Made by a program: the position numbers and the translations under genes
Notes under the pieces: model-generated
The model's database searches: none
Told to the model about the DNA's origin: nothing
Seen by the model: only the letters and a program-made list of their open reading frames with translations
In this document: positions 39,218-43,991 of the stretch, in pieces
How the letters are laid out: each line of letters opens with the position of its first letter
How positions within the stretch are numbered: position 1 is the first letter of the stretch
Assembly: GCF_021155765.1 (NCBI RefSeq)
Contig: NC_060114.1
Coordinates: forward strand, 11,933,001 to 11,997,000
Length of the DNA: 64,000 bases
Source of the DNA: Diprion similis
Taxonomy: Eukaryota; Arthropoda; Insecta; Hymenoptera; Diprionidae
Direction of reading: 5' to 3'

Positions 39218-42200
39218 TTAAGCAGGACACGGAGGATTGCTCAGTACGTTTTCACTCGCAGTCTGTAATCGTTCCAATTTCAATTCTTTCGGTGATGTAA
39301 CTTTACCTGTCATCTGGTCAGACATCTTTACCGTCGACCATCCCAGACTTCTTTGAACAGCCATTTTCCACTTGGTGTATCTCGCGTCTCTCTCTGCAAA
39401 TAATTATAAATCAATAGTTGATCGAACAGGTTATTTATGTATTTTGTGGAGCAACTGCTGCTTTTTTTTTCAAAATTATACTTTTCCTTTCAACTCTCAA
39501 TACGCTTGTTCAAACTCACCTTCTGGTGTCGTCGTTGGCAAAAACGTGTCGGTGGGGACTGTTTCTACCTCTTCACCCTCCAGCTCCCAGACACCGATGC
39601 CTTCCGCGTGTCCCGCTGCCATCGCCACACCCAGCGCCGTAATGTCAGGCATAGTTGATCTGACTAAAAATACCAGAAACGTTTACTAAACGTCGTCCAA
39701 TCTGTGCACAGAGGTATTTTTGCTTAACGTTAACAGTTTTCCGATCTTCTCTAACTATAACAACGCCTGATGATGTCTCTCTTTCAAATACCTGTTGCGA
39801 AAAACTCAAAAAGAATCTTGTCGAAGGTTTCAAGAAAAACTCTTCGCCATTCGAATAATTACTCACAGACTGGAGTGCCGCATAGATCTGCTTGCAGTTG
39901 CATCAACAAGTTATTGGTTGTCATTTTTCCATCGGTGTTTAGTTTCGTCAGTGGGAAACCACAGTCCTTGTGCATTGCCTCAAGGATATCCCTCGTTTGG
40001 AAACAAACAGCTTCTAAGGCGGCTCTGATAATGTGCTGCTTCGTCGTGAAGGCGGTGAGACCGCAAATAATACTTTTGAAGTGAAAGAAAGTCAGTTATG
40101 TCACCGCAGTTAAGAGTAACAAAGTGATTTAAACATTTAATACCCTCTGGCGTCTTTCCTCCAGTAAGGGGCGTAGAGGCCGGAAAATGCAGGGACGAAG
40201 TACACATCCCCTGTGCTGAAAACACTCTGCGCCAAATCTTCGCTCTCTTTGACATCATTGATCAACTTGATGTTGTCTCGAAGCCATTTTATCGCCGCTC
40301 CAGCTACAGCAACCGAACCTTCAAGCGCGTAAACAGCTGGACTGTTAGGGCCAAATTGATAAGCAACAGTGGTTACTAGCCCGTGAGACGATTGAACCCT
40401 CTAAAACAGAAGCTTTATATAAAAACTGTGTGTGTTTTTTTCTCTCTTTCCTTGCTTTGTTATTGTAATTTCTGTCGTTTTATAGATTGAATTCTGTCTG
40501 CGGGAAGAAAGTCCGGACAGGTTATTGCGCAAGTTTATAACTTGAGTAAATGATCGTAAACACAAACCGTTGTTCCCGTGTTACAGAGTAGAAAGCACCC
40601 GCTTCTATACGTATTCTTGGCCTGGCCTTGACGTAGACAGTTTTGACCCACCAGAGCAGATTGCTGGTTTCCGAGTATCTGATGTAACAGAGAAATGGGA
40701 GAGGGAAAAACATCAGTCAAGCATTTGGTGTCTGTGCGTTAGTCGAGCCCTGCTACAGAATCCAGAAACATGACACCGGTAGATCGGATTTCAAGAAGTG
40801 ATTTCAGGATTGAAACTTCCAAAGGATTTCGATGATTCTTCTCTTTTAATTCTTCTGCTTTTTATCAGAAACTTGAAGTTCAACCAAATAGCGAAAGGTA
40901 ATAATCACCCCGGAAATAGTGATGCCCCTCAAAGGTCCAACTGCGACCTTTCCGTATATTTCCGAGCTGCTTTTGATGTCCGGCAGGAGTTTCATCGGGA
41001 TGTCGAAGTACCTACAGAGGGTCGGGTCCCAGGAGAGAGTCTCAATGTTCATCAGCATCGTCCTCGAGGCGTTTGTAACGTCGGTTATGTAGAGTCCCCC
41101 ATCTTTGCCGCCGGTCAGGTTCTGGAAGGGCATCGCGAAGTGCGAATTAGAGTAACAACGTCGATCGCCATTTCCGAATTCCGAATCGGCATTCGCGCGA
41201 TGTCTGCAACTCGCTTACCCAGATCACCCAGGTGTCGACGGTTCCGACCTTGCACCTTCGCTCCCGCATCGCTTTCCATACTGTCGGCACGTTGTCTTTT
41301 AGCCATCTTATTTTAAGCGCAGAGAAATATGGACTCACCGGCAAACCACAAAGCGGTTTAAGGTGGTTTTTACTCTGGTCTGGAAACTTGGCGATGATCT
41401 GATCCACCGTAGCGTCCGTCCTGATGTCCGACCAGACTGCAAAACATGGTGGAGAAACAGCATCGATCAGGTATTAGCAACGCTTTAGTCACCTTTGACC
41501 CTTAGAGGACCGAAGTCTAAAGAATTTCGACAAATCTTTTTTCGACAAATCAAAATGTCGGTAGGTCAATGACCTTACGCCCTCGTGCCGGTTCTCCAAG
41601 GGTTGAAACCACTTTACTCACCTATCGCGTTGTACAGAGGCTCGCCGGTTGTCCCGTCCCAAGCAACGGTCGTTTCCCGCTGATTCGTTACGCCGATCGT
41701 CACTATGTCAGTCACGAAAAGACCTAGCCCCTCGAATTTCCGCAATACTTCCTTCACGCAGGCTTTTACAGCGAATAGAATTTCCTTCGGGTCCTGTTCC
41801 ACCCATCCTTCTTGCGGGCTGTGCTGCTCTATGTCTATCTGATGGGATGCTAGTTCGGCCACGTGTTTGGCGTTGAACACCTAAGAAGTGCATCGAATTT
41901 GAGAAAAAAAGACTCCCCATATTTTACAGGATCTTACTGATTACTGTAGTTTAGTTTCACTTAATTTTACGACCGTTAGAAAATTTATAACACCGTTGCG
42001 TCGTATCAGGGACAAGAAACACGCAAGTTTGGCTCAACCCTTTGTGTTATAGTGGTATAAGACATGATTTACATGAAGTATAACTTTTTGGGATCGTTGA
42101 TAACAAATCTGAAATCGGATTTAAAAAATTCGAGATGGCGGATCCAATATGGCAGACGAAAATTTCAAATTCAATCGAATCCGAAAAAAAAGTCTGTCTA

Positions 42201-43991
42201 ATCGTTTTTGAGCTTCCGTATTACGAATCTAAAATCAGATATTTTTTTCTCAAAAAGTTGACCCGTTGTCGAAGGGTTAAGGCCTGATCGGATTAGGTAC
42301 CTACAGTCGCTAATCTTTACTTTGTTGCCGGCGTGATATTTGAGGCTAGGCTAAAATTTTCGATATTAGGCGATTAGATATGTAATACTACCTGCCGCCG
42401 AGTGTCGAGATATGCTATATCTATATACATGATAGATCTCTACATCACTTGCTAATAACATACAAGCCTGTTTATACAGCCTCTGATAATGATCATAATC
42501 CGCACATCCAACCAGAGATAAGACGCGCGGAATATTTAAGGAATAATTATTATTATAAGCCAGGTTATAAATATTTCCGGTCGCTCAACGTTGTATAGAT
42601 TTTATGGTTCAAATTGAGCGCAATCGGTATTAGTTCGTTGTGGAATGTTTTAGGCGGGGGAAAAAAAAAAAAACTTTTTATTTTGGGAATGGAAATTTCC
42701 AGATCATTGCCAAATGATTTCATTAACGTTGAGTGAAATCAAATTGTGAATTCAAGGTCACGGTACTCGTGAAATCGCCGTCGGGGCTAAAATTGTTATT
42801 ACACGTACATAATACAGATTATTGGTGTTTAACGATCAGATAATTTCATATACATGGTTACGCCATGAGCAAATAATAAAATTAGTACCTCGGGACAATA
42901 AGAACAATTATTAAGTATTACGACCATTACACTGCGTAGATTAGGCTTTCGTTTAGCACGTAGATTGACCGTTTGAAAAAATATTTTATACGTACAATTA
43001 CCTAAATTATTTACAAGCTACATTTGCTTGTAATTTTACCGGATTATTGAAGCCATGACCCTGCATGCAGTATCAAATATACACACCGAGCAATAACCTC
43101 AGCATTCTTAAATATTTGCTCATTCGATAATGTGCTGAATCAATGTTTCTGGCACTCGGAAGTCGTTAAAAAAAAAAAAACAATAAAAAACGCAGACGTT
43201 GAAGAGAGAGAGAGAGAGAGAGAAAAAAATAGTGCCAAGCTTTGTATTAATATTTCAATATTAAGATTTTAACCAAATTATACATGAACTTGAACGCGAC
43301 GACTTTTTTTAAATTATGAGCTTGAATTTCTAGTGACGCGATCGTACGTGAGAAGATAATTTTTTCATATTAGACACTAACACGGATATACCGGGTGTCC
43401 CATTTCAATTTTACTTGTGATTGATCTCGGAAAATACGACTCCGATTGAGTATTGAGTAGAATGAAACTTTTAGAGTTCGAAGGGGAATGTTGAAAAAAA
43501 AAAATTTGTTTTGGTCCAAAATAAGGAATGGTGGTGTTAAAATGGCCAACATGTTGTTTTTAAATGGAAACATCACTCTTTTTCACCGAAAAATTTGTCG
43601 CACGAAATTTTGAACTTGACTTGACGTTTTGATTTGAAAAATTTTCGCTGGAATAAAAGTCGTGTACCATTTAAAAAAAAAACAAATATGGTGGCCATCT
43701 TGACGTCGCCATTTGTTAATTTGACCCAAAACTATTTTTTTTTTTCAACATTCCCCTTCGAACTCTAAAAGTTTCATTCTACTCAATACTCAATCGGAGT
43801 CGTATTTTCCGAGATAAATCAGGTGTATGATTAAAATGGAACACCCGGTATATATACATTATATAACTCGTTGCAGGGAATAGACGTTATTGGTATTTTA
43901 TGTTTTTCTTTTTTACCACAAATCTCACGGTCCTCGTGCCGACATCTATTACTCCGATGAGAGGTCCAGTCCTTTTTGTCGACGCAGGCAT
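39218..43991 (-). CDS. Glycerol-kinase-like protein (FGGY family), probably catalytically impaired
   Basis: Glycerol kinases convert glycerol and ATP to glycerol-3-phosphate. Nine exons join in frame: 43917-43991, 41622-41880, 41219-41436, 40909-41121, 40568-40678, 40144-40400, 39867-40072, 39520-39663 and 39218-39393 (1659 bases, 552 residues, normal length). Both FGGY signatures are present (about residues 148-160 and 378-398). Glycerol contacts Arg93-Glu94 (NQRETT), Trp113, Tyr148 and Gln260 are kept. However, the catalytic Asp is Asn259 ([12 protein letters not shown] in place of LGDQ). The N-terminal phosphate loop reads [10 protein letters not shown], the usual NTYGTG is NTYRSG, and the usual DGGM is DGKM (Lys427). 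The frame is intact, so this looks like a maintained pseudoenzyme rather than a decayed gene. One exon uses the less common donor GTTTGT, and intron 1 carries two MITEs. Confidence 0.93.
42034..42280. mobile_element. MITE with (T)CAACCCTTTG and GAAGGGTTAA ends, in GK-like intron 1
   Basis: The right end is GAAGGGTTAA and the left end TCAACCCTTTG, which suggests a TTAA target site with one point change, as in piggyBac-type MITEs. Internal blocks such as GATGGCGGATCCAATA and ACGAATCTAAAATCAGA resemble those near 17.5-17.7 kb. No open frame is present. Confidence 0.55.
43387..43852. mobile_element. Foldback MITE, arms about 108 bases, in GK-like intron 1
   Basis: The ends are TATACCGGGTGTCCCATTT and its near complement. 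The arms are almost identical; CGACTCCGATTGAGTATTGA and GAACTCTAAAAGTTTCAT-type blocks occur inverted on both sides. It ends 65 bases from coding exon 1 of the glycerol-kinase-like gene. No transposase is present. The close match of the arms suggests recent activity or gene conversion. Confidence 0.8.

What the first reader, a model, noticed from the sequence alone, without database searches (positions are those of the whole stretch)
39218..43991. Glycerol-kinase family gene that keeps its frame but has lost the catalytic Asp
Seen: a nine-exon, 552-residue frame with both FGGY signatures. Known: in glycerol kinases the Asp in the LGDQ motif is the catalytic base, and substitution of it by Asn in the E. 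coli enzyme is reported to damage activity. Here it is Asn259 (codon AAC). Three more invariant motifs are changed: the phosphate loop ([10 protein letters not shown]), the adenine-side GTG (now RSG) and DGG (now DGK). Most glycerol contacts are kept. Inference: a maintained glycerol-binding pseudoenzyme, perhaps a glycerol sensor or a partner of the active paralogue, of interest in insects where glycerol is a cryoprotectant.
Basis: partly seen in the sequence, partly recalled or inferred. Interest (0 to 1): 0.75.

Follow-up and report, generated by a model that had tools for sequence, protein, structure and literature searches.

The report
Ancient insect glycerol kinase lacking catalysis
Many insects carry, beside their working glycerol kinases, an old sister copy that keeps the glycerol-binding pocket but has swapped out the key catalytic residue, so it is probably not an enzyme although databases name it as one.

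Summary
The gene (minus strand, Diprion similis) has Asn259 for the catalytic Asp. This is no single-species quirk: of 142 relatives listed by two searches, all 141 with a letter there have Asn259 and Arg280 (eight insect orders, recalled taxonomy). Of 122 rows of the canonical type, 122 have Asp and 121 Gly. The Asn rows form one clade (100/99). Glycerol contacts stay fixed while phosphate-side positions change, and the protein is usually more conserved than its canonical paralogues. Published fall-armyworm RNAi partly fits: HPLC glycerol fell slightly with the Asn copy (44.07 to 40.36 mM) and sevenfold with the Asp copy, but a colorimetric assay there did not separate them. Best reading: an old insect glycerol pseudokinase, probably tail-anchored on mitochondria, acting without catalysis. 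Loss of activity, glycerol binding, location and partners are inferred, not measured.

The parts
47868..47925 (-). alternative first exon of RefSeq isoform X1 (adds MLHRKGSTWQYFAFNPVGTEA before MPAS; donor GTACGG, spliced to 43996)
   Evidence: sequence printed
43917..43991 (-). exon 1 coding part (isoform X2); loop [11 protein letters not shown] (Asp16 kept, Arg20 for Ser/Thr)
41622..41880 (-). exon 2; glycerol contacts Arg93, Glu94
41219..41436 (-). exon 3; glycerol contacts Trp113, Tyr148
40909..41121 (-). exon 4
40568..40678 (-). exon 5; LGNQ (Asn259, codon 40667-40669) and YRSGCF (Arg280, codon 40604-40606)
40144..40400 (-). exon 6
39867..40072 (-). exon 7; DGKMT (Lys427)
39520..39663 (-). 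exon 8
39307..39393 (-). exon 9 up to the donor GTAAAG
37351..37448 (-). exon 10: completes Asp524, then ERYKMLASIPASWFLMTSFILLQLSTYLENR and stop; hydrophobic C-terminal tail

Best explanation
The gene is the Diprion similis member of a single, old insect clade of glycerol kinase paralogues whose catalytic base (E. coli Asp245) is Asn and whose phosphate-loop GTG is mostly R-S-G. It keeps the fold, the glycerol pocket and a conserved hydrophobic C-terminal tail. Most likely it binds glycerol but transfers phosphate very poorly or not at all, sits on the outer mitochondrial membrane by its tail, and works as a regulator or scaffold, for example by pairing with the tail-bearing canonical paralogue (C14 copy). 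Shown: sequence changes, single clade, protein-level constraint, pocket retention, tail. Inferred: glycerol binding, loss of activity, mitochondrial site, pairing.
For: Asn259 141/141 and Arg280 141/141 against Asp 122/122 and Gly 121/122. Of 104 columns invariant in the canonical rows and E. coli GlpK, three are changed in most Asn rows: 195, 259 and 281. Glycerol contacts: R93 140/140, E94 140/140, W113 139/139, Y148 135/141, Q260 141/141, F284 141/141. The second active-site acid (E. coli Asp10) is replaced in 13 of 136 Asn rows. Monophyly 100/99 with 30 of the 141 Asn rows, 17 of the 122 Asp rows and E. coli GlpK, and SH-aLRT 99 with 26 motif columns removed. Identity to the Diprion protein is higher for the Asn gene than for C14 in 13 of 14 pairs and than for C3 in 13 of 14 pairs. 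Tail motif in 120/141 Asn rows, 0/70 and 0/52 canonical rows. S. frugiperda: Sf-GK1 lists Asn266, Sf-GK2 Asp258; HPLC glycerol 40.36 (dsGK1) and 6.08 (dsGK2) against 44.07 mM control. Mouse Gykl1/Gk2 are a non-catalytic mitochondrial precedent.
Against: No activity or binding was measured. Asn can still hydrogen-bond glycerol and a residual rate cannot be excluded; Asp16 (123/136), Arg23 (105/138) and the glycines at 282, 326 and 426 are mostly or always kept, so ATP may still bind. The protein passes NCBIfam's GlpK cut-off (684.3 against 590.35 bits). In the fall-armyworm paper a colorimetric assay put all three knock-downs at 29-35 against 73 for control, which does not separate the two copies; the small HPLC fall with dsGK1 is marked significant there; the authors conclude that both GKs make glycerol. 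The tail is only moderately hydrophobic, and the mitochondrial site is by analogy.
Confidence: 0.62

Rival explanations
1. It is still a working but slowed or retuned kinase: Asn orients the substrate and the enzyme phosphorylates glycerol slowly or another polyol.
For: Fold and pocket intact; Asp16 kept in 123 of 136 rows; RNAi of Sf-GK1 gave a small fall in HPLC glycerol marked significant, and a large one by the colorimetric assay.
Against: The catalytic Asp is Asn and Gly280 is Arg in all 141 rows; the other active-site acid is replaced in 13 of 136 rows. A retuned kinase would be expected to keep its base and change its substrate contacts; the reverse is seen.
Confidence: 0.2
2. It is a mitochondrial adaptor like mouse Gykl1/Gk2, for a partner such as Pld6/Zucchini or VDAC, and glycerol binding is a relic or only structural.
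For: Mouse Gykl1/Gk2 show no kinase activity in vitro, sit on the outer mitochondrial membrane by C-terminal sequences and bind Pld6; PDB 7nie, titled as putative glycerol kinase-like proteins anchored on voltage dependent anion channels, was the best phmmer hit of the window protein. The Asn copy has a conserved hydrophobic tail.
Against: Independent origin: the mouse proteins are described as intronless, testis-restricted retroposons, whereas this one is old and intron-bearing. A pure adaptor would not need six glycerol contacts fixed in nearly every row.
Confidence: 0.17
3. A decaying duplicate or a sequencing or assembly change in one species.
For: None found.
Against: 141 of 141 relatives share it; open frame; identities mostly higher than in the canonical paralogues.
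Confidence: 0.01

Closest known systems
Canonical insect glycerol kinases, C14 and C3 copies of the same genome (L010, L009)
   Same: About 62% identity in the core; all nine introns of the Asn gene have counterparts of the same phase in C14, and eight of nine in C3; same FGGY domains in their Neodiprion orthologues
   Different: They keep LGDQ/VGDQ, YGTG and DGG; the Asn clade has LGNQ (or IGNQ), YR-x-G and mostly DGK, and its own tail motif
Mouse Gykl1 and Gk2 (glycerol kinase-like, testis)
   Same: No detectable kinase activity reported, C-terminal mitochondrial targeting, proposed adaptor role
   Different: Testis-restricted intronless retroposons; the paper names a difference at Asp17; not insect, not intron-bearing
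Spodoptera frugiperda Sf-GK1
   Same: Asn266 with Arg99, the numbers of the Asn-type Chilo row P0113 (R99, N266): very probably the same orthologue
   Different: Published as a glycerol-making enzyme; the Asn was listed as a glycerol-binding residue; no remark on its catalytic meaning in the passages and sections I read
E. coli GlpK (PDB 1bo5/1glf)
   Same: Fold and glycerol contacts R83, E84, W103, Y135, Q246, F270
   Different: Asp245, Gly266, Thr267 and Gly411 are changed in the window protein
Drosophila dGyk and dGK
   Same: Insect FGGY glycerol kinases; RNAi of either lowers activity
   Different: No fly sequence was among my named rows, so whether either is of the Asn type was not tested

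Membership tests
[quoted passage not shown] TIGR01311 above cut-off | tested here: met
   P0001: Pfam 224 and 153.6 bits; TIGR01311 684.3 against 590.35
Active glycerol kinase | Catalytic Asp of LGDQ | tested here: not met
   Asn259 in the window and in 141 of 141 relatives; Asp in 122 of 122 canonical rows. That this Asp is the base is recalled.
Active glycerol kinase | GTG phosphate-side loop | tested here: not met
   Arg280 141/141; Ser281 121/141; canonical GTG 121/122
Active glycerol kinase | Glycerol-contact residues | tested here: met
   R93, E94, W113, Y148, Q260, F284 kept; the seventh contact is the Asn itself
Active glycerol kinase | ATP-dependent phosphorylation of glycerol | not testable with these tools
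   needs purified protein
Pseudoenzyme (pseudokinase of the FGGY fold) | Catalytic residue lost while frame and fold stay under constraint across species | tested here: met
   constraint from protein identity only, dN/dS not computed
Pseudoenzyme (pseudokinase of the FGGY fold) | Measured absence of activity | not testable with these tools
   none in the papers seen
Tail-anchored outer-mitochondrial protein | Hydrophobic C-terminal segment with short end | tested here: met
   A 17-residue window of mean Kyte-Doolittle 1.6 or more within the last 60 residues in 112 of 141 Asn rows (65 of 70 C14-type, 23 of 52 C3-type rows; in the C3-type rows printed the stretch lies inside the domain); helix 535-554 in the model. 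The window protein reaches 1.75; some Asn rows, such as P0013 at 1.35, fall short.
Tail-anchored outer-mitochondrial protein | Localisation | not testable with these tools
   needs imaging or fractionation
Gykl1/Gk2-type adaptor | Pld6 or VDAC binding | not testable with these tools
   needs pull-down

The most novel reading that the evidence does not exclude
Neopteran insects keep a membrane-anchored glycerol receptor made from a dead glycerol kinase: glycerol binding to it sets the activity or position of the canonical kinase (C14 copy) on mitochondria, and so the switch between storing glycerol as cryoprotectant and burning it.
Probability: 0.25. Interest if true: 0.82.

Novelty: new variant of a known kind. 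Interest (0 to 1): 0.64.

Why it matters
A gene labelled 'glycerol kinase' in many insects probably does not phosphorylate glycerol, so annotation, metabolic models and cold-hardiness RNAi studies that pool 'GK' genes may need re-reading. It also gives a clean, testable case of a carbohydrate-kinase pseudoenzyme: catalytic and phosphate-side residues changed, substrate pocket frozen, across neopteran orders. I found no description of it in the held open-licence library (ten searches; the lists were cut at 20 papers). Martinez Agosto and McCabe 2006 on fly glycerol kinases was not held and may bear on this.

Tried and rejected
Single-species error or pseudogene: rejected. Lys427 as a clade mark: rejected. 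dN/dS: not done, no orthologous coding DNA of other sawflies is held. The fall-armyworm ORF lengths as published (343 and 332 residues) do not fit full-length kinases, so its orthology rests on residue numbers and spacing alone. The 141 and 122 rows include isoforms: at 98% identity they reduce to 114 Asn and 57 + 42 Asp rows. One row of the Asn list (P0090) has a gap at 259 and was left out of the counts. Each list came from a query of its own type, so 141 and 122 are samples of the two groups, not a random draw of insect glycerol kinases. The Asp rows' own clade has weak support (67/48; SH-aLRT 99 with motif columns removed) and the E. coli root is very distant, so I do not claim which canonical copy is the nearest sister. 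The Periplaneta pair printed under C14 was dropped from the count: its canonical row P0259 falls with the C3 type by identity and in the tree. The rivals' odds were lowered by 0.08 for the adaptor reading so that the readings sum to one; no fact changed.
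Full report

Is the catalytic change real and old? Two protein searches (queries: the window protein and the Anabrus relative P0105; each lists only its best 120 of 7997) gave 142 different proteins. In their alignment 141 have a letter at position 259 and all 141 are Asn; all 141 with a letter at 280 have Arg; Lys at 427 is found in 112 of 142. By the source names they come from Hymenoptera, Coleoptera, Lepidoptera, Neuroptera, Orthoptera, Blattodea, Phasmatodea and Hemiptera (orders recalled; some rows are unnamed). 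A third search, with an alignment of the two canonical paralogues of the same genome, listed 120 further proteins; with the two paralogues themselves, 122 of 122 have Asp at this site, and the GTG loop reads GTG in 121 and STG in 1. In an IQ-TREE tree of 48 rows chosen by me (30 of the Asn rows, 17 of the Asp rows, E. coli GlpK) the Asn rows are one side of a branch with support 100/99, and inside it the rows fall out as Polyneoptera, Hemiptera and Holometabola. With 26 motif columns removed the support is still SH-aLRT 99. So the change most likely happened once, before the neopteran orders split (several hundred million years ago; recalled).

The same genome keeps canonical copies. PF00370 finds three GlpK-like genes, on contigs C10 (this one), C3 and C14, plus weaker FGGY matches on C7 and C2. 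The C14 gene reads IDAGTGSCRF / LGDQ / YGTG / DGG and ends in a hydrophobic tail of its own; the C3 gene reads IDEGTSSARF / VGDQ / YGTG / DGG and ends without one. All nine introns of the Asn gene have counterparts of the same phase at matching places in C14, and the first eight in C3, so the copies arose by DNA duplication, not by retrotransposition.

Which residues changed? With E. coli GlpK as the ruler, 104 alignment columns (letters in at least 110 of the 122 canonical rows) are invariant in the canonical rows and in E. coli. Three of them differ in most Asn rows: 195 (His; Tyr 90, His 46, Phe 4 among Asn rows), 259 (Asp to Asn, 141/141) and 281 (Thr to Ser or others). Position 280 (Gly to Arg) is changed in all 141 Asn rows and kept in 121 of 122 canonical rows. 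Glycerol contacts, as named in PMC3245297 and PMC7765489 (passages seen), stay: Arg93 140/140, Glu94 140/140, Trp113 139/139, Tyr148 135/141, Gln260 141/141, Phe284 141/141. Positions on the phosphate and metal side are looser: the E. coli Asp10 site is not Asp in 13 of 136 Asn rows (mainly crickets, katydids, grasshoppers, cockroaches and termites), the Thr14 site is Arg in 111 of 139, and the Thr267 site is Ser in 121 of 141 and otherwise Gly, Lys, Ala, Asn, Gln or Asp. This is the pattern expected if phosphate transfer is no longer selected while glycerol binding is. Against it: Asp16, Arg23 and the glycines at 282, 326 and 426 are mostly or always kept, so ATP binding cannot be ruled out.

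Is it under selection? dN/dS could not be computed. As a substitute, identity of the Diprion protein to its counterpart was compared for the three genes in 18 species or genus pairs (in Colletes, Xylocopa and Neodiprion the rows of one pair come from different species of the genus). Leaving out Periplaneta, whose canonical row is not a C14 orthologue, the Asn gene is higher than C14 in 13 of 14 pairs (91.1 against 82.7 in Cephus, 88.7 against 80.7 in Odontomachus, 85.3 against 75.1 in Odynerus; exception Neodiprion, 98.0 against 98.4) and higher than C3 in 13 of 14 pairs (exception Neodiprion, 98.0 against 98.2; Orussus is nearly equal, 78.4 against 78.3). Columns at least 95% conserved: 305 of 506 in 89 Asn rows taken as Hymenoptera by their rank, 291 of 504 in 70 C14-type rows, 282 of 497 in 52 C3-type rows, the last including three non-hymenopteran or unnamed rows. 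A useless copy would not be held this tightly.

The tail. The motif [MI]T[DEGNS][DE]R[YF] near the C terminus occurs in 120 of 141 Asn rows and in none of 70 C14-type or 52 C3-type rows. From Hymenoptera to Orthoptera it runs into a moderately hydrophobic segment.

What published data say. In Spodoptera frugiperda (PMC8904778; passages and sections 8 and 9 seen) the authors modelled glycerol-binding residues Arg99, Glu100, Phe155, Asn266 in Sf-GK1 and Arg92, Glu93, Phe148, Asp258 in Sf-GK2. The numbers R99 and N266 are those of the Asn-type Chilo row P0113, so Sf-GK1 is very probably this orthologue; in the parts I saw the Asn was not remarked on. Their HPLC table gives glycerol 44.07 mM (control, cold), 40.36 (dsGK1), 6.08 (dsGK2), 22.58 (dsGPDH), all marked as different from one another. 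After dsGK1 cold pre-treatment still lowered mortality; after dsGK2 or dsGPDH it did not. Against my reading, their colorimetric assay put all three knock-downs at a basal 29-35 against 73, the authors conclude that both GKs make glycerol (GK2 with the greater effect), and knock-down was 40-80% only. All three genes were cold-inducible. In Drosophila, five glycerol-kinase-related genes are described, two predicted to be active (PMC3302884, passages), and RNAi of either of those lowers activity (PMC3765373, passages); I had no fly sequence to place them.

How it probably works. Mouse Gykl1 and Gk2 have no detectable kinase activity in vitro, sit on the outer mitochondrial membrane through C-terminal sequences, bind Pld6 and cluster mitochondria independently of kinase activity (PMC5566117, passages and section 10). 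PDB 7nie, titled as putative glycerol kinase-like proteins anchored on an array of voltage dependent anion channels in the outer mitochondrial membrane, was the best sequence hit of the window protein in the PDB. Another lineage has thus turned tail-bearing glycerol kinase copies into mitochondrial scaffolds. I take the same kind of role as most likely here, with the difference that the fixed glycerol pocket argues that glycerol still binds and matters: a glycerol-liganded scaffold or sensor, possibly paired with the tail-bearing C14 enzyme. Loss of activity I put at about 0.8; mitochondrial anchoring at 0.6; a glycerol-sensing partner of the active kinase at about 0.25. These are judgements.

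Novelty. Non-catalytic glycerol kinase-like proteins exist (mouse), and only two of five fly relatives are predicted active, so the kind is known. A clade fixed for Asn at the catalytic site across neopteran orders, named glycerol kinase in nearly every named record (a few are 'hypothetical' or 'unnamed' proteins) and conserved like the real enzymes, was not described in anything I could search.

Noticed in passing
window 43386-43853: Intron 1 holds a MITE-like element: 134-nt arms, 90% complementary, 200 nt apart; 35 matches to the arm in the genome (a lower bound, the two arms here included), several in opposite-strand pairs.
   Followed up: partly
window 33980-35032 and 10570-11346 (-): Open frames that by eye look like the N-terminal and SH2/RING parts of a Cbl E3 ubiquitin ligase spread over about 25 kb downstream of the kinase gene; not searched.
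   Followed up: no
window 53149-53640 (+): Open frame that by eye resembles peptidyl-tRNA hydrolase 2; not searched.
   Followed up: no
window 57135-58157 (-): Open frame that by eye resembles a GPR180/intimal-thickness-receptor-like membrane protein; not searched.
   Followed up: no
window 39218-39306 and relatives P0017, P0099, P0126, P0131, P0141: Records of several insects end in a read-through of the same donor (...MTGK...), hinting at a soluble intron-retained isoform or a shared annotation artefact.
   Followed up: partly
L012 (G000:C2): A more distant FGGY gene, GK5-like by eye, with weak matches to the window protein; not classified.
   Followed up: no
C14-type and C3-type rows P0143-P0262: The second Gly of DGG is Ala in 61 of 122 canonical rows, so this site is not a reliable mark of activity.
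   Followed up: yes
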